The notes beneath the pieces were generated by a model. That model was given only the letters and a program-made list of their open reading frames with translations. It searched no databases and was not told the origin of the DNA. From NCBI GenBank assembly GCA_024398965.1, contig JAKSIF010000001.1:124001-188000 (forward strand): 64,000 bases of DNA, read 5' to 3'. How positions within the stretch are numbered: position 1 is the stretch's first letter; each line of letters begins with the position of its first letter. This DNA comes from Fibrobacter sp. GTDB taxonomy: Bacteria; Fibrobacterota; Fibrobacteria; Fibrobacterales; Fibrobacteraceae. Position numbers and translations under genes: made by a program. Positions 42,773-53,421 of this stretch are shown here, one piece after another.

Positions 42773-43702
42773 ATGAACGGCAAAATTCGATTCGCCCCCA
42801 GCCCTACAGGCTATCTTCACGAAGGCCATCTGCTTTCGGCGCTTTACGTGTGGGCTGCTGCTAAAAAATGGAATCTACACATCCATTTGAGAATCGAAGA
42901 TCACGACCGGGGCCGAACTCGCCAAGCCTATATTGACGGCATCCGCGAAGACCTGGAATGGCTCGGTTTCCAATATCATAGTCAAAGCATTCAAAGCGAG
43001 CGCCAGGAAATCTACAGGGAAGTCCTTCAAAAGCTAACGGATCACAACCTGGTCTACCCCTGCACCTGCAGCAGAAAACAGCTGGAATCAGAGAATCCAC
43101 GAAGCAATACGGGAGAAATCATCTACCAGGGGAAATGCCGCAATTTAGCGGAGAATTTAAAGGCTAAAGGAGAAAGCTACTCAAGTTGCATTCTGCCGCC
43201 TCACAACCTCCGATTCAGAATTACAGATAAAATAATCAACTGGCAAGACCTTCGTCTTGGTTCATTCAGCGAAAATCCCGCCGAGCAATGCGGAGACTTC
43301 CCCATTGTAGACCGAGACGGTTTCTTTACCTACCAATTCTGCGTCTGCGTAGATGACCTTGATCAGGGAATAACCCACATCGTCCGTGGCGAAGACATCG
43401 TCAATTCTACTGCCAGGCAAATTGAATTGAGCCAAGCGATCTGTCAAACCACCGGCGGCACCATCGGAAGCATCCCCCTGGAATACCCTCATCCCACGTA
43501 CCTTCACCACGGGCTAATCACGGACCCCTCCGGCAAGAAACTGTCCAAGCGAGAACTGGCCCACAGCATCCGCCAAGACAAGGAAGCAGGTGTAACCCCA
43601 GAGCAGCTCCTTGGCAGGGTCCTTTTCAAGGCCGGATTCCAGCAGACCGATACTCCGGTAACTCTGCCCCAGGCCATAGATTTCTTAAGCAGTACCCTTT
43701 AG
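42773..43702 (+). CDS. gluQ: Glutamyl-Q tRNA(Asp) synthetase
   Basis: 309 residues, the truncated glutamyl-tRNA synthetase length without anticodon domain. RFAPSPTGYLHEGHLLSAL (5-23) contains the HIGH-type motif and GKKLSKRE (about 253-260) the KMSKS equivalent; a zinc-type Cys pair is in YPCTCSRKQL. It attaches glutamate to queuosine in tRNA(Asp). Divergent from the M16-like lipoprotein. TATTTTTG is six bases upstream of the ATG. Confidence 0.92.
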   Translation: MNGKIRFAPSPTGYLHEGHLLSALYVWAAAKKWNLHIHLRIEDHDRGRTRQAYIDGIREDLEWLGFQYHSQSIQSERQEIYREVLQKLTDHNLVYPCTCSRKQLESENPRSNTGEIIYQGKCRNLAENLKAKGESYSSCILPPHNLRFRITDKIINWQDLRLGSFSENPAEQCGDFPIVDRDGFFTYQFCVCVDDLDQGITHIVRGEDIVNSTARQIELSQAICQTTGGTIGSIPLEYPHPTYLHHGLITDPSGKKLSKRELAHSIRQDKEAGVTPEQLLGRVLFKAGFQQTDTPVTLPQAIDFLSSTL

Positions 43703-43760: not shown

Positions 43761-46700
43761 ATGTCAGTGTCACCATCGGCCATCGTATCAAAGATTCGTC
43801 AAGAAGCAACCCTTTTTGACTCTCGAGATCGCCTTCTCAACTATTCCGCCAAGGGAGACTTTCAGTCGCCCCTTATCATGGATGCAGGCGACCTTTTTTA
43901 CGACAAGTGGCTGAAATCCAAGGAACCCCTGACACTGGATACCTTTTTCCCAGTCTCCACAAACTTTTCCGTTCAGCAGAAGATCGCCATTTCCGACGCC
44001 ATGACGTCCGTTCTTCGTGAAAAGGACGAGGACTTCGGCGAATCCGACCTGTACATGGTCATTGGATTCCTAAAGTGGGACGGAAACGCTCTTGCCCCAA
44101 GTCTGCTCATTCCCCTGAATGCAGACCTGCAAAAGAAGACGCTCAGCCTGTCAGACAGGCTCCCTGTAGAAAACGTCATACTGAGAGAACGGCTCCAAGA
44201 CAAGATTTCACTTCCCAAGGCAGAAGACGCCGTAGTAGACGGCAATTTCAACATCGATCGTTACTTCAGCCTGTTCGAAAAGGCTGTCAGCCAGGAACGA
44301 AGCTGGAAATTCACTCGCCACGGCATTTGCCTCGGTTTCTTCAATACAAGTCGTCTACTTCTCAAAAAACAGATGGAACAGGGATGGAACGATAAGGAAA
44401 TCGACACCAACCCCATTCTGTCATCCCTTCTTATCGAAGACGGCTTTGAGATCCACGAGTCCCTATTCGAGGACTCCACATTCGACCAGATATTCTCTCC
44501 GGCCGACCACAACTTTTTATACCAGACCGACTCTCACTCCACTAGGGTCACCATTGACGCCCTTTGCGACAAGAATTGTGCCTACACCATACAGGCCCTG
44601 CCGGGAACAGCCAAGATAAAGGTCGCGGCCAACATCGTCGCCGAATCTGTGGCAAAGGCCCAGAAGGTTCTGGTCGTCAGCCGCAGAGCGGTTACTACAA
44701 ATAATTTCCAGATTGCATGGAAGCCTCCCTATAGAATATTCCCCGACGTGGACCGCCCCGCCTTGGAGCAGCAGCTCCGCAAGGCCCGCAAGGATTTTTC
44801 CGACTACTACGCCATAGTCAATAATCCGGTTCAACCATCCGGGGTCATGCTGTCCGACCTACTTTCCGAGTTCATCGGAGCCAAGGCTCCCAAGCAAAAG
44901 ATTCCGGAAAAAGTATTCAAGGGCGTTTCCGAGTTAAGCTACGGAAAGTATCTTACACTCAAGGAAGACCTGGACAAGCTGATAGACCTGTACTTCGAGA
45001 AAAACGGATACGAAGTTCGCAAGGCCTTCCAGGGAGTAAACGTTCCTACGCTTTCTCCAGAGCAGCAAGATGAACTTTCCCAGGAACTGAACAAAGCCGC
45101 AGACAGTGTCCAAAAACTGGACAAGATGATTCACATGCTGGAAGTCTCTGGACTGTGTCCAACAGGAATCTTCCTCACCAGCCTTCTTGACCTATTCGAG
45201 CTGATTCAAGAAAACTTTAACGAAGCAACCCCCACCTACGAGGATTGGCAGCTTCGCTCCAACAGCTGGACTGCCTACAAGGACACTTTACAGGAACTTC
45301 CGAAGGCTGGCGCAACCTGGGTAGACTACCGCAGGCAGAATTCCGAAATCTACACAGACAATGCAGAAGACGAAAACATTCTCTCTGCCCGTGAAGATTT
45401 TGCAGAAAGTCAGAAAATCGCACTCAAGGGTTTATCTGATCGTTACCGTTCCTCTCGTAGGCGCCTGCTCCAGGTATTCAAGAACCCTCGCTCCATTTCC
45501 AGCGACGCACAGCTTCTGGAATACATCGACGCCCTGCTGGATTTGCAAGAGAACAAGAGAGCCTACAAGGAAAGCGCCGTCCTCGGCAACCACCTGCTGG
45601 GAAAAGACTGGCTCTACGAGAAATCCGACTGGAACATCCTGCAAGAAAAAATCGACTTTATCTACGACTTCAGGGAAAAGAACAAGAAGAATCCCAAGCT
45701 AGATCTGCTACTCCATGTTCTTGAGCAGTGGCACCTGTTCAAGGATTCCCTGCCAGAACTTGCCGACCTGCTGGAAACCACCAAGAATCTTCAGCAGTCT
45801 GTCCGTCAAATTTCCAAGGACATGGAACTGGAAACGTCCCTAGAAAGCCTGGACATGACCAAGTGGCTGGACACAATCAAGTCCTGGAGCGAAAACTGGA
45901 ACAACCTGGACATTCAGCTTCAGCTCACGACATTGTTCAAAAAGTTCGAAGCATACAACTGTCCAGAATTATTGGAATTCGTTCAGGACGTCAACAACGT
46001 AAGCCGTGATATCAAGCAGGCAGTCGTTTACCATTGGACTGGTTCCCAGATCCAGGCCACCACAAAGAACTATCCCGACCTGTTTGCCGTCAATCCCAAG
46101 GCAAGGAATCAGAAGTGCAAAGCCTACCAGGAATTACTGGACAAGTTCAGCAACGCAAACTTCAAGCAGTTCCACGACACACTGGCCCAAAACGAAAACC
46201 AGCTGACAACATGTACGTTAAACCAGTTCCTCTCCAAAACGGAACGGGACTCCTACGACATAGCCGTTGTCCTTGATGCAGACTGCATCAGCATCGCCGA
46301 ATCCTTACCCATCATTCTTTGCTCCAACCGCGTCATCTTTATTGGCGACGCCCATAGTCCGAGCATTGAACAACTGCCTTTTGACGCCTACCAGGAAAAT
46401 CCGGTTTCTCACACACAGTTCTTCCAGGAAAGCATCCTGGCATCAACGTTACGTCAGGGAATCCCCACCAGAGAACTCTGGCTGTCTACCGTATTCTCAG
46501 ACATGGCACTGGTCGGATTTGCCAACAGTCATTTCTATAACCAGGGAATCAAGCAGCTACCGCCCCCTCGTAAAGACGAATTCAAGGGAATCAAGTTCAA
46601 GGTTGTCCGCGACAAGGTATCGGCCATCGCGGAAGCGGCCATTCAACATGCCGAAAAGCACCCGGGTCAGACCCTAGGCATCATCGCCTTCCACCAGTCT

Positions 46701-47879
46701 ACCTGCCATGAAATTGAAGCAGAAATTCAAGCCATGGTTCACATCGATACCCCGGCAGCAAGGTTCTTTGGACAGACCAACAACAACATCCGTTACTTTG
46801 TCAAGACTCCGGAGCGTGCTGTTGACCGTTACCGCGATGTCATGCTTATTTGCGCAGAAGCCGAAGGCGCCACTGGCCTAGCCGGCGATAAGAAGATTTC
46901 CGTCTGTTCTACTCTGGCAAAAGCCGAAACCCAGGTGTTCATCTCCGAAGCGGATCTGTCAAAGCAGACCGCCGCCAAGACCAAGCAGTCCCTTTTCTGG
47001 GAGTGGATATCCTACCTGCAGTCAAAGAATTTTACCTGCAATAGCGACGCTCGCTCCGTCGGCTCCGTTATTCAGCCCATGGTTCTGGAGGCTCTTTCTC
47101 AAGAAAATCTGAACGTGGAAAGCAACTTTGCCACAGGAGGAATTTCAGTAGGTCCCGTGGTCGTAGATGCCAACAACTCCAACAGGTTCCTGACTTTGAT
47201 CGAGGACGACTGCACAACGGAACGTTTCCGCGATTCTGTCGAAGATCGAATCTACATTCGTCCCACCATACTCAAGCAACTGGGCTGGAAGGTCATCAAC
47301 CTTTGGCTTCCCTTCTGGTACATGTCCAACAGCGACGAAGTTGGACACCTTGTAACAACCATCGCCATTGAACAAAGCGTGGCACCGCCGCCAGTAGAAA
47401 AGGATTCCTCGGAAGAAGAAGAAAATATCGAAGAAGTTGCAATAAGCGCAGGTCCGGCTGTAGAACCTTACCTGGTGCAACACCCCAAGATTGAAGGCAC
47501 TCCTCACGACAAGCCTATTGCAGAACTTCCTGCAGCAGCCATCGTCACCCAGCTCAAGTTCTACGTCGATCACGAGGCTCCGATCCACGAGGAGATCCTG
47601 ATGCAGCGTGTGCTGGAGCTGCACCATGTAGACCGAGCAGGGCCAGTACTTAAACAGGTTTTGACCGAAGCCATCAACCAGGGGCTCCAGAAGAAACGCT
47701 TTGTTAAAACAGGCCCGTTCTTCTACTCTCTGAACCCCATCAAGATAGGCCCCAGAGACCGATCACAGCGCCCCGCCAGCGAACGCAAGCTTGTTTACGT
47801 TGGGCCAGAGGAACGATCCATGATGCCAGCATCCATGGATGAGCACGCAATCAAGCTTGCATTAGGCCTGTTGGAATAG
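43761..47879 (+). CDS. DUF4011/DUF3320-type superfamily-1 helicase homologue with degenerate ATPase motifs
   Basis: 1372 residues. DUF4011-like N-terminus with DSRDRLLNYS (20-29), an ATPase core interrupted by a long helical insertion (about 340-790), then a nuclease-like segment near 1130-1190 (LTLIEDDCTTERFRD, ILKQLGWKVINLWL) and a DUF3320-type C-terminus (about 1235-1320, EAPIHEEILMQRVLELHHV). Walker A reads ALPGTAKI (279-286) instead of GPPGTGKS: only Lys285 and PGT remain. Walker B is VVLDA (836-840) instead of DE, and GDAHSPS (862-868) replaces GDPKQLP. The frame is intact, so it is not a pseudogene in the usual sense. TATATTCA precedes the ATG by four bases. Confidence 0.8.
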   Translation: MSVSPSAIVSKIRQEATLFDSRDRLLNYSAKGDFQSPLIMDAGDLFYDKWLKSKEPLTLDTFFPVSTNFSVQQKIAISDAMTSVLREKDEDFGESDLYMVIGFLKWDGNALAPSLLIPLNADLQKKTLSLSDRLPVENVILRERLQDKISLPKAEDAVVDGNFNIDRYFSLFEKAVSQERSWKFTRHGICLGFFNTSRLLLKKQMEQGWNDKEIDTNPILSSLLIEDGFEIHESLFEDSTFDQIFSPADHNFLYQTDSHSTRVTIDALCDKNCAYTIQALPGTAKIKVAANIVAESVAKAQKVLVVSRRAVTTNNFQIAWKPPYRIFPDVDRPALEQQLRKARKDFSDYYAIVNNPVQPSGVMLSDLLSEFIGAKAPKQKIPEKVFKGVSELSYGKYLTLKEDLDKLIDLYFEKNGYEVRKAFQGVNVPTLSPEQQDELSQELNKAADSVQKLDKMIHMLEVSGLCPTGIFLTSLLDLFELIQENFNEATPTYEDWQLRSNSWTAYKDTLQELPKAGATWVDYRRQNSEIYTDNAEDENILSAREDFAESQKIALKGLSDRYRSSRRRLLQVFKNPRSISSDAQLLEYIDALLDLQENKRAYKESAVLGNHLLGKDWLYEKSDWNILQEKIDFIYDFREKNKKNPKLDLLLHVLEQWHLFKDSLPELADLLETTKNLQQSVRQISKDMELETSLESLDMTKWLDTIKSWSENWNNLDIQLQLTTLFKKFEAYNCPELLEFVQDVNNVSRDIKQAVVYHWTGSQIQATTKNYPDLFAVNPKARNQKCKAYQELLDKFSNANFKQFHDTLAQNENQLTTCTLNQFLSKTERDSYDIAVVLDADCISIAESLPIILCSNRVIFIGDAHSPSIEQLPFDAYQENPVSHTQFFQESILASTLRQGIPTRELWLSTVFSDMALVGFANSHFYNQGIKQLPPPRKDEFKGIKFKVVRDKVSAIAEAAIQHAEKHPGQTLGIIAFHQSTCHEIEAEIQAMVHIDTPAARFFGQTNNNIRYFVKTPERAVDRYRDVMLICAEAEGATGLAGDKKISVCSTLAKAETQVFISEADLSKQTAAKTKQSLFWEWISYLQSKNFTCNSDARSVGSVIQPMVLEALSQENLNVESNFATGGISVGPVVVDANNSNRFLTLIEDDCTTERFRDSVEDRIYIRPTILKQLGWKVINLWLPFWYMSNSDEVGHLVTTIAIEQSVAPPPVEKDSSEEEENIEEVAISAGPAVEPYLVQHPKIEGTPHDKPIAELPAAAIVTQLKFYVDHEAPIHEEILMQRVLELHHVDRAGPVLKQVLTEAINQGLQKKRFVKTGPFFYSLNPIKIGPRDRSQRPASERKLVYVGPEERSMMPASMDEHAIKLALGLLE

Positions 47880-48441: not shown

Positions 48442-51400
48442 CTACTTGGCCAAGTTCAGGTAGTCGGTGTTGGGAGTAGCAGACTTACGCACACCCCAGA
48501 CAGAGGTTTCGTTCTGCTTAGCTTCCTTACCGTGCTTGCCGAGCTTGACGTAAGAGTCAATCTTTGCGATGTAAGCACCGGTACCGACCTGACGACCGTT
48601 ATCGGAACGCATGTTCCAACCGATGTAGAAGTTACGACCGTTACCAGCGTCGGTGCACTTGCCACCATTGAAGTACGGAACCTTGTTCTTAGCGTCGTCG
48701 CAGTAAATCTTACCGCTCTGGCCAGCAACATAGGCACCCAGGTTGGTGTAGTATTCAACCTTGTAGTAGAAGTAGACTTCGCTAGGATCGATTGCAGACT
48801 GTTCTGCACCGCTCAAGCCGTTGTACAGGGAGAACATGTCAGCCTTTACAAAGTGGCCCGGAATACCGCCGATGTTTTCATCAGCAAGGATTTCTGCATA
48901 GCCCTTGATGGTGGGGAAGCCATATACGACAACCGGAGGATCCTTGTCGGTGGCCTTGGAGTTACCGGTATTAGCAAACTTGTTTTCCTTAACAGTGATT
49001 TCGGCGTCACCAATGACTTCGATCCACGGAGAAGGCAGACGATCCTTTTCGTCGTAACCAGTGGGAGAATTCCAGTGGTAGTTCACGTCGAAGCTGCCGC
49101 GGAGGCTATCCTGGCTAGGATCGGTGAATTCAGTAGCATCAGACCAGAGAATCGTTGCGAGGTTACCACCCAAGCGAACATAGTCACCCACGTGAGGAGA
49201 CTGGCCACCACGGAGGAACAACAGCTTGACACGGCCATTGCCGTTCTTGTCGGTGCTGGTCACCGGAGCAGCGTTTGCTTCGATAATGGTAGAAGAACCA
49301 CCGATTGCAGAGGCAAAACGATCCGTTTCAGCAAGTTCAATAGCGGAGTTCAGGTAGAAGTCCATCACGTTCTTGGTGTTGGCAACGCCTTCCAGGAGCT
49401 TGACAGGTTCAGACATGGTAATCACAAGGCTATCGAAGTCAGCCAAGGTACCATCCTTGTTCTTAAGAGAACGAACTTCGGCAGACAGAGGAATCGGGGC
49501 GATACGGTCAACAAGAGCGCCCTTGAAGCCCTGCTTAACTTCCTTGTTCTTGTCCTTGAACACGGCGTAGGAGTGAACGAAGCCGCTACCATAGGTCTTG
49601 GGAGAAACAGAGAGCTTTACATCGCTTACGGTAACAACCTGAGAGCAATAGCCATCGGCATCAGCTTCGCCAGCGGAGAACTTGGTGGTATAGGCGTTGC
49701 AGAGCAGTTCGGTATCCTTTTCCTGGTTAGAGAAGCCGAGCTCAACCGGGTTGATCTTTTCTGCAGAAGTGGAATCCCACAAGAAGCAGATCATGGTGGG
49801 CAGGGAGTCCTTATGGATGGGACGGTCGTAGTAGATTGCTACGGAGTCTGCAATACCATCCAGGTATTCCTGGCTCATGCTAAAGTAGGGAGACGGAATA
49901 TTGAATTCGTATGCCGGAGTGGAGCCCTTGGTATCGAAGATATCAGCAAACTGCGGGAACGGTACAGGCGGCTTACGGAAGTAGACCGGGCTGAACACAG
50001 CCTTCATCAAGGGGTTTTCACCGACGATGACGATGCTTGCCGGATTGTGGATGGCAGGATCGGTATCCCAACGGAATTCCTTCTTGGAAGAACGGATGGA
50101 AATCTGAGCCTTACCGTCTACAAAGACCAGTTCTGTACCGGTCTGGGCTTCAAGACCTTCAGAGGTTTCAGAACCCAGAGAGAAGGTGAAGTTACAGCTA
50201 GAACCGCAGCTAGAGTAGGTACCATCAGCATTGGGCTTCAAAGCTTCCAAGTAGAAGTTGTAGTAGGTACCAAGCCAAAGTTCTGCATCGCCAAGGTAGG
50301 ATTCCTTGAAGGTGCCATCACCGTTCGGTTCCATACCGCCAAAGGAATTGCCTTCTTCATCGACAAAGCTCAAGGTCGGCAAGAAGATGTTGATGTTTGC
50401 AATCTGGGCACCGCCGGTAACCTTCACAGGGAAAGTCTGGATCGGAGTGCTAAGAACCATGAGAGACACGTAGGCAAATACGGTATCAACACCGGTCTGT
50501 GCGCTAATGGAAAGCTTTTCGCCCGGAGTAACCATGACCAGGTTACCAGCATCATCCTTCTGGTAGATTGTCATGCCTTCGGGGATATCCAAGGTATAAG
50601 TCATGCCAGTAGCATCATCGGGCTGCATAACCCAGTTGCCGTTCTTATCCTTGTCGCCAGTAATTGCAGAAACATAGATAGGTACCATGTCATCGATAGT
50701 GGGGCTACCCGGCATACCCATGGCAGTACCCACAAAGGTGTAGGCGCCACCCGGAAGTGCAACACCAGCGGTATCGTATGCTACAGCATCACCCGGGACA
50801 ACGTCAACCTTACCCTTGGTACGGAAGGTCTGAATCTTCTTATGCTTGCCATCGATAACAACGTACAGAGTATAGGTACCCTGACCAAGAACCAGCTTTT
50901 CTGCATAAATCTTGGGAGAGGTGGGGTCGGTCAAGTCAATGCCACCGAGGTTCATCTGGCCCGGAGTCAATTTACGACCGGCTTCAGCATCAAAGGCAGT
51001 TCCCTGGATAAGGAGATACTGGGTCTTTACACCGCATTTGGTTTCAATTTCAGAGCCACAGCAAGTGACGGCTTCGTCTGTGCCAGTCATTGCAGAAGCG
51101 CAGGAGCCATCGCCAGACTTGGTGTAGCACATTTCATAAATCTTGCCACCCTTAGGATCGTTGGGATCCGGCTTAGCCTTGGCCGTAATGTCCACCTTCT
51201 GCATGATGTACATGTTTGTCTTGATACGGACGTTAGACATGGTAGTACGACGGTCGCAGAAGAAAATGTCGAGGTCGTATTGATTACCCGTTTCCAGCTT
51301 ACCGCTAAGGCCTTCAAAGTTATCCAGGTCAACATAGCCAGGAGCAGCAAGATGGGTACCACCCAGGTCCACAGCCAGCTTGTTATCAATAAACACCCAA

Positions 51401-53091
51401 ATGTCATCGTCACCGCGGAAGTTGAACTTCAGGCCCGGCTTCTGGGTGAACTTAGCATGGGATTCAAAGCAGTAGTGCTGGTTACGCATACCGGACCAAC
51501 GAGGAGAACCGGAAGCCATCTTGATCTGAGTGCTAGCCTTATAGAACTGCCAACCCTTGGGGGCTTTATCCGGGCAAGACCAACCAATAACGCATTCTGC
51601 AGCAGGATATGCCGTCTTAATGAAGGCATCAGTAGCATCACCATCAGCAAAGATACCAGAGCAGTCATAACCGCCCTTCCAGCCGGGGCCATTGCAAAGA
51701 AGGTCGATTACAGGAATGCCTTCCTTGGGATCATTTTCACGAAGTACCGGACCATAGAAGATTGCGCCTTCTGCAGCACGCTTAGTACGAGCGGCAGCAA
51801 CCGGAGTCTGCGTGGGGTCAGCAGCCAAGATAGATTCGTCGGTGCTGTTTTCTACCGGGTAGAAACCACCAGCAAGAGAATCCGTAGCTGTTGCAGAAAT
51901 CTGAATCAAGGTCTTGTTGAAGTCGGAGTCAAATTCCCACTTGCCGTCGGAAGAACGACTGAAAGGCATGTCATAGCAGCTCTTTTCGTTCACACCCTTG
52001 GTGTAATTGAACAAGGAGTTGAACAAATCATCGTTAATGAAGCACTGCTTACCGAAAGTACTCAGCTTAGGCTTACGCAGCTGCTGGGGAGTAGCAGGAT
52101 CCAAAGTCGGTTCCACAATACCCGGAGTAACACCGATACAACGGTTAACCGCAGCCACAGCAGTAGCCTGATCAACACCAAGGGCACCAGTCTGGCAGCC
52201 TTCGTCACCCTGAGAGTAGCAGGAGAATGCCGGATGAAGCTTGGCATCGGTATCGTAAATAATAGCAGCCATGGTGTAAGAGCAGGTACCTTCTACACCT
52301 TCGGGGTATTCCATATACCAGCCTTCGTCGGCAGGGTCAAGCCACTGATCCACGTCAGGCACGAAGTACAGGGTGTTTACGCCATAGGTTTCAAAGAAGG
52401 TATTCAGAGGAATGGGGGTAGCCTCATCTTCAGAATTACCATAAAGACCAATCATATCGAGACGATCCGGGTCGTCGTCACGGAAAAGAACCACGTTATC
52501 AGAAATTTCTTCGTTGAACCATACGTAGGTATACCACCCACACTTGTCCGCATCTGCAGCTAAAGGCTTGCCAGTAACACCGCCATCCATACTAATCATG
52601 GGAACAGAAGACATCCAGTCTTCCTTATCGGGTGGAACCATTACGTACAGGTACTTGGCGTTAGGAGGATTGTTGCCATAAGCGGTCTTACCCGGAGTGG
52701 TGGGATCTTCGTAGATGTAAAGATCACCCTTTTCGAGGTCTTCACAGGTGAATGCATCGGTATTCAAACTTTCGTTATTGGCAATATCGTAACCACGACG
52801 GTCAATCCACTGAGCGGGGTAATGGGTACCCGCACTATTTACGCGGAAAGAAGTACCTTGACCAACAGAGGCTGCCTTAGCCTCGTACCAACCAGAGGTA
52901 CCAACCTTAAGTTCCGGGAACATACCACCGGCTTCCAAAGTCACCATAGTCCAGGTCTTAGGAACCTTAATAAAAATGGTACCTTCGCACTGTAATGCGA
53001 ACGCACTCTGCACTCCTGCAACCAACATGCAGGCACCCAAAATCCACTTTAACAAGGTGTTTTTTGTGTTTTTCATAATCTTAATATCCAT
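48442..53091 (-). CDS. Fibro-slime domain surface protein
   Basis: 1549 residues from the ATG at 53091 (AAGGA nine bases upstream); another ATG at 53076 is possible. Signal peptide about 5-35 ending SAFA. N-terminal beta modules (about 40-460), the fibro-slime/PA14-like domain (about 465-625) with FRGDDDIWVFIDNKLAVDLG and a following YDLDIFFCDRRTT, then several Ig-like or beta modules and a C-terminal region with WNMRSDNGRQVGTGAYIAKI typical of FlgD-like Ig folds. Fibro-slime proteins are cell-surface or secreted proteins of Fibrobacter, several of them bind cellulose. Monocistronic. Confidence 0.92.
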   Translation of the reverse strand: MDIKIMKNTKNTLLKWILGACMLVAGVQSAFALQCEGTIFIKVPKTWTMVTLEAGGMFPELKVGTSGWYEAKAASVGQGTSFRVNSAGTHYPAQWIDRRGYDIANNESLNTDAFTCEDLEKGDLYIYEDPTTPGKTAYGNNPPNAKYLYVMVPPDKEDWMSSVPMISMDGGVTGKPLAADADKCGWYTYVWFNEEISDNVVLFRDDDPDRLDMIGLYGNSEDEATPIPLNTFFETYGVNTLYFVPDVDQWLDPADEGWYMEYPEGVEGTCSYTMAAIIYDTDAKLHPAFSCYSQGDEGCQTGALGVDQATAVAAVNRCIGVTPGIVEPTLDPATPQQLRKPKLSTFGKQCFINDDLFNSLFNYTKGVNEKSCYDMPFSRSSDGKWEFDSDFNKTLIQISATATDSLAGGFYPVENSTDESILAADPTQTPVAAARTKRAAEGAIFYGPVLRENDPKEGIPVIDLLCNGPGWKGGYDCSGIFADGDATDAFIKTAYPAAECVIGWSCPDKAPKGWQFYKASTQIKMASGSPRWSGMRNQHYCFESHAKFTQKPGLKFNFRGDDDIWVFIDNKLAVDLGGTHLAAPGYVDLDNFEGLSGKLETGNQYDLDIFFCDRRTTMSNVRIKTNMYIMQKVDITAKAKPDPNDPKGGKIYEMCYTKSGDGSCASAMTGTDEAVTCCGSEIETKCGVKTQYLLIQGTAFDAEAGRKLTPGQMNLGGIDLTDPTSPKIYAEKLVLGQGTYTLYVVIDGKHKKIQTFRTKGKVDVVPGDAVAYDTAGVALPGGAYTFVGTAMGMPGSPTIDDMVPIYVSAITGDKDKNGNWVMQPDDATGMTYTLDIPEGMTIYQKDDAGNLVMVTPGEKLSISAQTGVDTVFAYVSLMVLSTPIQTFPVKVTGGAQIANINIFLPTLSFVDEEGNSFGGMEPNGDGTFKESYLGDAELWLGTYYNFYLEALKPNADGTYSSCGSSCNFTFSLGSETSEGLEAQTGTELVFVDGKAQISIRSSKKEFRWDTDPAIHNPASIVIVGENPLMKAVFSPVYFRKPPVPFPQFADIFDTKGSTPAYEFNIPSPYFSMSQEYLDGIADSVAIYYDRPIHKDSLPTMICFLWDSTSAEKINPVELGFSNQEKDTELLCNAYTTKFSAGEADADGYCSQVVTVSDVKLSVSPKTYGSGFVHSYAVFKDKNKEVKQGFKGALVDRIAPIPLSAEVRSLKNKDGTLADFDSLVITMSEPVKLLEGVANTKNVMDFYLNSAIELAETDRFASAIGGSSTIIEANAAPVTSTDKNGNGRVKLLFLRGGQSPHVGDYVRLGGNLATILWSDATEFTDPSQDSLRGSFDVNYHWNSPTGYDEKDRLPSPWIEVIGDAEITVKENKFANTGNSKATDKDPPVVVYGFPTIKGYAEILADENIGGIPGHFVKADMFSLYNGLSGAEQSAIDPSEVYFYYKVEYYTNLGAYVAGQSGKIYCDDAKNKVPYFNGGKCTDAGNGRNFYIGWNMRSDNGRQVGTGAYIAKIDSYVKLGKHGKEAKQNETSVWGVRKSATPNTDYLNLAK

Positions 53092-53421
53092 CGATGGTTT
53101 TCCTTCCAACAAGGGCATAACAAAAAGACCGGCCTTTCTGAAACGCCACACCGCGCTAAAATTTATTCTTTTATTTTAGAAAATGCCAAACAATTTTGCG
53201 TGAATAAGTAAAAAAAATGGTTCCTGATGTATACAATTTGTGAATAAAACGGCAATTTGGTCATATATCACACGAATTTGCGTGCACCAATGTAAATTTT
53301 CGTTAAACATTTTGTTTTTCAAAGCAGTTTGCAATCATTTTCCCCGTTTTTTACGTGTAAATAATATGTAGGGCGAATCCGCCTTGCGCTATTGCGGGGG
53401 CGTTCCCGTTTTGGAATTATA
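53092..53421. other. Intergenic region between the divergent fibro-slime and Rpn genes
   Basis: 330 bases, AT-rich and without a gene. The fibro-slime promoter must lie here (TTTTATTTTAG-type sequence near 53170-53180 on the plus strand). The part next to the Rpn gene (53365-53410) is GC-rich (GGGCGAATCCGCC, TTGCGGGGGCG). I see no clear terminator or RNA gene. Confidence 0.5.

What the first reader, a model, noticed from the sequence alone, without database searches (positions are those of the whole stretch)
43761..47879. Full-length DUF4011/DUF3320 helicase homologue with every ATPase motif degenerated
Seen: the 1372-residue frame is intact and keeps the family's order (RDRLLNYS start, PGT loop, GD turn, nuclease-like segment, C-terminal HEEIL domain). 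Walker A is ALPGTAKI, Walker B is VVLDA without the Glu, GDAHSPS replaces GDPKQLP, and the motif that should read TRAR is STLAKAE. Known: these large SF1 proteins are ATP-dependent and often linked to defence or DNA processing. Inference: a pseudoenzyme kept under selection, perhaps a DNA-binding scaffold or an ATP-independent nuclease. It carries a large helical insertion between the two ATPase halves.
Basis: partly seen in the sequence, partly recalled or inferred. Interest (0 to 1): 0.75.

Follow-up and report, generated by a model that had tools for sequence, protein, structure and literature searches.

The report
Dead helicase kept as core gene
Nearly all Fibrobacter species, and most related genera, carry one full-length copy of a protein descended from a phage-defence helicase-nuclease that has lost all its ATP-burning residues and key DNA-cutting residues yet is held under strong selection, so an immune enzyme seems to have been turned into a non-catalytic core protein.

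Summary
Its nearest models are anti-phage families: PADLOC PDC-S37 (388 bits) and NCBIfam ProA (268 bits, far under the 1500-bit cutoff). One orthologue occurs in 78 of 80 genus genomes and in six further Fibrobacteraceae genera (29-65% identity). In all, the Walker A, Walker B, motif III, V and VI catalytic residues are replaced, and the VSR-type nuclease has lost its catalytic Asp and His. Sporadic relatives in three Fibrobacter genomes and on plasmids keep the ATPase motifs. dN/dS is 0.015-0.093 in close pairs. Former ATP-contact sites are now among the fastest-evolving, while structural residues beside them are invariant. AlphaFold gives an SF1 fold, a VSR-type nuclease fold and a winged-helix-like end. 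An rpoB tree indicates one gain in the ancestor of the clade and one later loss. The helical insertion is shared by the intact family. Best reading: a domesticated pseudo-helicase/pseudo-nuclease acting as an ATP-independent nucleic-acid-binding scaffold, by analogy with AddB/RecC. That role is inferred, not shown.

The parts
43761..47879 (+). degenerate DUF4011/DUF3320 (ProA/PDC-S37-like) helicase-nuclease homologue, 1372 aa
43749..43755 (+). TATATTC, -10-like element just before the ATG (leaderless-type start), kept in 59 of the 60 orthologous upstream regions printed
43761..44750 (+). residues 1-330: DUF4011-type N-terminus and first helicase half
44595..44624 (+). degenerate Walker A, ALPGTAKIKV (residues 279-288)
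44667..44696 (+). motif Ia position, VLVVSRRAVT (303-312); E-K of intact relatives is R/K-R/K here in nearly all
44751..46205 (+). helical insertion between the helicase halves (331-815), shared with PDC-S37
46266..46292 (+). degenerate Walker B, VVLDADCIS (836-844): Asp to Leu838, Glu to Asp839
46344..46364 (+). degenerate motif III, GDAHSPS (862-868)
46806..46841 (+). degenerate motif V, TPERAVDRYRDV (1016-1027)
46905..46928 (+). degenerate motif VI, CSTLAKAE (1049-1056), arginine finger to Leu1052
47058..47375 (+). VSR/EDxHD-type nuclease fold (about 1100-1205) without its catalytic Asp and His; E1148, D1150 and R1167 invariant
47466..47876 (+). C-terminal DUF3320 region, winged-helix-like (1236-1372), the most constrained part
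42773..43702 (+). GluQRS-like tRNA glutamyl-Q synthetase, the fixed upstream neighbour

Best explanation
The gene is a catalytically dead descendant of a ProA/PDC-S37-type anti-phage helicase-nuclease. It was acquired once, in the ancestor of a clade of seven Fibrobacteraceae genera, next to gluQRS, and has since been inherited vertically as a core gene. It keeps the SF1 helicase fold, the long helical arm, the nuclease-like fold and the winged-helix-like C-terminus but cannot hydrolyse ATP or cut DNA in the family's usual way. It most likely works as an ATP-independent nucleic-acid-binding scaffold or sensor that acts with another protein, as the inactivated helicase folds of AddB and RecC do. 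Shown by sequence: orthology, loss of residues, purifying selection. Predicted: the fold. Inferred: lack of activity, nucleic-acid binding, a partner.
For: Orthologues in 78/80 genus genomes, in all genomes of g5, g6, g7, g9 and g10 and in two of three of g11. Catalytic residues replaced in all, while intact relatives keep them. dN/dS 0.015-0.093 for pairs with dS under 0.7. Sites of the old P-loop Gly, Mg-Thr and motif III Gln lie at the 81st-89th percentile of variability, whereas G282, D839, G862, R1025, D1026, A1053, E1148, D1150 and R1167 are invariant. AlphaFold pLDDT 86.5; SF1 fold, best match IGHMBP2-RNA Z 19.0, rmsd 3.1, 363 aligned. Nuclease fold I-Bth0305I Z 10.8, rmsd 2.4, 91 aligned. 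Single gain and one later loss on the rpoB tree. Conserved -10-like element. A basic residue is kept at motif Ia. Precedent: inactivated helicase domains of AddB and RecC are proposed to read Chi in ssDNA (PMC4824097).
Against: No binding, partner or phenotype is known. Walker A Lys is kept in 54 of 65, so nucleotide binding is not excluded. The only fixed neighbour, gluQRS, gives no DNA-related clue and is missing in G103, which still keeps the gene. Two Fibrobacter MAGs have broken reading frames (G031 stop, G032 split) and G108 lacks the gene, so it is not strictly essential. The phage-defence origin rests on family labels.
Confidence: 0.6

Rival explanations
1. It is still an anti-phage factor: a non-catalytic sensor, decoy or regulator used in phage defence, perhaps together with an intact ProA/PDC-S37.
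For: All its closest models are anti-phage families, and intact relatives occur in some Fibrobacter genomes.
Against: It is a single-copy core gene in a fixed locus beside gluQRS, unlike the patchy intact copies (full length in G060, G062, G035; a partial model match in G091). Most genomes that have it show no full-length intact family member, so it cannot depend on one.
Confidence: 0.18
2. It is an ATP-independent nuclease with a rebuilt active site: E1148, D1150 and R1167 of the VSR-type fold are invariant, as is N1138.
For: Invariant acidic pair and Asn in the nuclease segment; nuclease fold kept in the model.
Against: The catalytic Asp (column 1131) is Gly/Gln/Ser and others, and the His is lost in all orthologues, while intact relatives have both or at least the Asp. 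The RAP domain of FASTKD4 also appears among the fold matches.
Confidence: 0.12
3. It is a non-canonical NTPase: Lys285 and Asp839 suffice for slow nucleotide hydrolysis or a nucleotide switch.
For: Lys at the Walker A position in 54 of 65, Asp839 invariant.
Against: Several lineages have lost the Lys (TPPGTFAF in g5, PGSSREE in one g6 species, PGTDWDR in part of the genus). The Walker B Asp, motif III Gln and the arginine finger are gone everywhere, and the Mg-binding Ser/Thr position is highly variable.
Confidence: 0.07
4. It is a decaying pseudogene that happens to stay open.
For: One stop in G031 and one split frame in G032.
Against: dN/dS about 0.05, full length at 30% identity, dozens of invariant columns.
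Confidence: 0.02

Closest known systems
ProA anti-phage protein (NCBIfam NF058533) and PADLOC candidate PDC-S37
   Same: Same domain order, helical insertion, VSR-type nuclease and DUF3320 end; best model matches
   Different: Members read here keep the SF1 ATPase motifs and occur patchily, some on plasmids; this one has lost the motifs, scores 268 against a 1500-bit cutoff, and is a vertically inherited core gene
Hhe, DUF4011 anti-phage protein of Klebsiella plasmids (NF042953)
   Same: Same superfamily, aligned over the second helicase half and nuclease
   Different: Hhe has GPPGSGKS, DEASQ, GDPKQLPP, QGDERD and ECDGAAYH motifs and a longer body
AddB / RecC (inactivated SF1 helicase folds of DNA break resection complexes)
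   Same: Works-like precedent: SF1 folds that lost most or all ATPase motifs and are proposed to act as scanners for ssDNA sequences (PMC4824097)
   Different: Different nuclease family (RecB-type, not VSR-type; own knowledge), different SF1 subgroup, and they act beside AddA or RecB; no such partner is known here
UPF1/IGHMBP2/DNA2 (SF1 helicases)
   Same: Among the best fold matches of the helicase part
   Different: Active enzymes; sequence identity only 12-15%
I-Bth0305I / VSR-type endonuclease fold
   Same: Fold of the nuclease-like segment, Z 10.8
   Different: Catalytic Asp and His absent here

Membership tests
DUF4011/DUF3320 helicase-nuclease superfamily | domain order DUF4011, split SF1 helicase, VSR-type nuclease, DUF3320 | tested here: met
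   DUF3320 over its cut-off, MTES_1575 slightly under (35.2 of 38.2 bits), DUF4011 under (15.2 of 22.2)
ProA anti-phage protein (NF058533) | score at or above the curated 1500-bit cutoff | tested here: not met
   267.7 bits; L072 and L206 reach 2043 and 1570
ProA / PDC-S37 / Hhe | intact SF1 ATPase motifs | tested here: not met
   replaced in all 65 orthologues
ProA / PDC-S37 / Hhe | anti-phage activity | not testable with these tools
   needs a deletion or expression assay
SF1 helicase fold | two RecA-like domains in the SF1 arrangement | tested here: met
   predicted model, Z up to 19.0 to SF1 helicases
VSR/MTES_1575 nuclease | catalytic Asp and His of the site | tested here: not met
VSR/MTES_1575 nuclease | nuclease fold | tested here: met
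   Z 10.8 to I-Bth0305I, rmsd 2.4 over 91 residues
AddB/RecC | partner helicase-nuclease AddA/RecB | tested here: inconclusive
   gluQRS is the only fixed neighbour found; no PDDEXK_1 hit in G000, G060, G063, G102 or G110, hits in G062, G015, G103, G105

The most novel reading that the evidence does not exclude
A phage-defence helicase-nuclease was captured by a bacterial lineage, stripped of both catalytic activities, and turned into a core non-catalytic component of chromosome or RNA metabolism: an independent counterpart of AddB/RecC built from a different helicase and nuclease family.
Probability: 0.35. Interest if true: 0.8.

Novelty: new variant of a known kind. Interest (0 to 1): 0.6.

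Why it matters
Named members of this family are treated as immune enzymes. A whole clade that keeps a dead copy as a core gene would be a clear bacterial case of immune-gene domestication through loss of catalysis. It also warns that annotation pipelines may wrongly count this protein as a defence system: PADLOC's PDC-S37 model gives it 388 bits. It is testable in culturable Fibrobacter such as F. intestinalis.

Tried and rejected
Link to queuosine: the downstream gene of the g11 copy L044 is a radical-SAM protein, but it scores as a pyruvate formate-lyase activase, not QueE, and the other g11 copy has a different neighbour. Operon with gluQRS: it is upstream wherever both exist in the loci read, but a conserved TATATT element sits just before the start codon, G103 keeps the gene without gluQRS, and other genera have gluQRS without it, so shared function is not supported. 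Replacement of missing RecBCD/AddAB: PDDEXK_1 presence does not track the gene. GKT in the g11 copies (LPGTDGGKT): out of register with the P-loop, not a true Walker A. PDB sequence search: no hit. A first rpoB tree used wrong frames for some genomes and was discarded, then rebuilt. Papers on PDC-S37: none.

Full report
What is there. The frame window:43761-47879 (+) is open and encodes 1372 aa. Pfam finds REase_MTES_1575 (residues 1107-1201), DUF3320 (1269-1296) and a weak DUF4011. PADLOC gives PDC-S37 at 388 bits and Hhe at 59. NCBIfam gives ProA at 268 bits and Hhe at 97, both far under their cutoffs. No solved structure matches by sequence.

Orthologues. A protein search of 111 Fibrobacteraceae genomes finds the gene in 78 of 80 genomes of the genus. 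The two misses, G023 and G040, are 65% and 71% complete. It is also in every genome of g5, g6, g7, g9 and g10 and in two of three of g11, at 29-65% identity and mostly full length. Exceptions are a stop in G031, a split frame in G032, and fragments in G017, G042 and G095. It is absent from g2, g3, g4 and g8 and from the rest of the phylum, where the profile finds only other family members or fragments. A scan of 84,980 prokaryote genomes returned 66 loci, all with Fibrobacter or Fibrobacter-related titles, among them Fibrobacter intestinalis ATCC 43854. That scan used two conserved C-terminal peptides and would miss distant relatives.

The motifs. In all 65 aligned orthologues the ATPase motifs are broken. 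Intact relatives (L071 and L072 from two Fibrobacter genomes, five plasmid-borne proteins from other taxa, and Klebsiella Hhe) read GPPG[TS]GKSQT, DEASQ, GDx[KR]Q[LM]PP, QGDERD and [TS]R[AS][KR]. Against them the window protein has Gly to Ala279, Gly to Ala284, Ser/Thr to Ile286, Walker B Asp to Leu838, Glu to Asp839, motif III Gln lost, motif V QGDERD replaced, and arginine finger to Leu1052. The nuclease catalytic Asp (FRIDMGI in L071) is Gly1131 and the His of AYH is lost, but E1148, D1150 and R1167 are invariant. Two ProA-type relatives with intact ATPase motifs, L072 and L205, also lack the His and the Glu of ECD, so the nuclease varies even there.

Selection. Pairs with dS under 0.7 give dN/dS of 0.015-0.093, with low values in every domain and the lowest mostly in the C-terminus. 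In 52 non-redundant orthologues the old P-loop Gly (284), Mg-Thr (286) and motif III Gln (866) positions lie at the 83rd, 89th and 81st percentile of variability. G282, D839, G862, R1025, D1026 and A1053, in the same motifs, are invariant. This is what loss of ATP chemistry with retention of the fold predicts.

Fold. AlphaFold2 on residues 173-1372 with 51 sequences gives pLDDT 86.5 and pTM 0.65. VIA-align puts it with SF1 helicases: IGHMBP2 Z 19.0, rmsd 3.1, 363 aligned; UvrD 18.8; UPF1 18.6. Residues 1085-1372 alone give pLDDT 82.3, pTM 0.49. The nuclease-like part matches I-Bth0305I (Z 10.8, rmsd 2.4, 91 aligned), and the tail gives weaker winged-helix matches (Z about 7). The N-terminal 172 residues were not modelled. 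The helical arm 331-815 is matched by PDC-S37 positions 395-880, so it is a family feature.

History. On an rpoB tree the gene-bearing genera sampled form one clade (bootstrap 100); g4 and g8, without the gene, branch outside, and G108 inside the clade lacks it. The gene tree largely agrees, except that g11 sits near an unresolved root on a long branch. Of 62 loci checked, 61 have gluQRS upstream on the same strand, 60 of them within 13-85 nt; G103 has no gluQRS. A TATATT element just before the ATG is kept in 59 of the 60 upstream regions printed. The same arrangement precedes five other window genes, suggesting leaderless transcripts are common here.

How it probably works. Since neither ATP hydrolysis nor canonical cleavage is expected from the sequence, the protein most likely binds nucleic acid or a partner. 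A basic residue at motif Ia is kept (Arg or Lys at 309 in 64 of 65), and the neighbouring Glu of intact relatives has become Arg/Lys in 62 of 65. AddB and RecC are the precedent: inactivated SF1 folds reused to read Chi in ssDNA (PMC4824097). A core DUF4011 gene is known in Pseudomonas aeruginosa, where it flanks a defence hotspot in every isolate (PMC10250203); whether that one is catalytically intact was not tested.

Verdict. Observation confirmed; pseudoenzyme well supported by sequence; scaffold role inferred; new variant of a known kind.

Noticed in passing
window 12878 (+), 24560 (+), 33049 (-), 43749 (+), 48387 (-), 59289 (-): TATATT lies 6-10 nt before the ATG of long open frames; Fibrobacter genes may often be transcribed leaderless from such -10 elements.
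   Followed up: partly
L071, L072, L073 (G060, G062, G035): Intact, full-length PDC-S37/ProA-type copies occur sporadically in Fibrobacter at other loci; the L071 copy lies near a PDC-S01-type AAA/DUF4143 gene.
   Followed up: partly
L072, L205: ProA-type proteins with intact ATPase motifs but a nuclease reading CDGKNYK, without the Glu and His of ECDGAAYH.
   Followed up: no
G000, G060, G063, G102, G110, G108: No PDDEXK_1 (RecB/AddA/AddB-type nuclease) match, although related genomes have one; these species may lack RecBCD/AddAB.
   Followed up: partly
window 48442-53151 (-): 1569-aa fibro-slime/PA14 protein, with a relative downstream on the opposite strand in most loci; a 1343-aa antisense frame (48532-52563 +) overlaps it.
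   Followed up: no
L205 10427-11557 (-): A reverse transcriptase family gene sits beside the Bacteroides finegoldii ProA-type gene, on a record labelled plasmid that also carries rpsA and glutamine synthetase.
   Followed up: no
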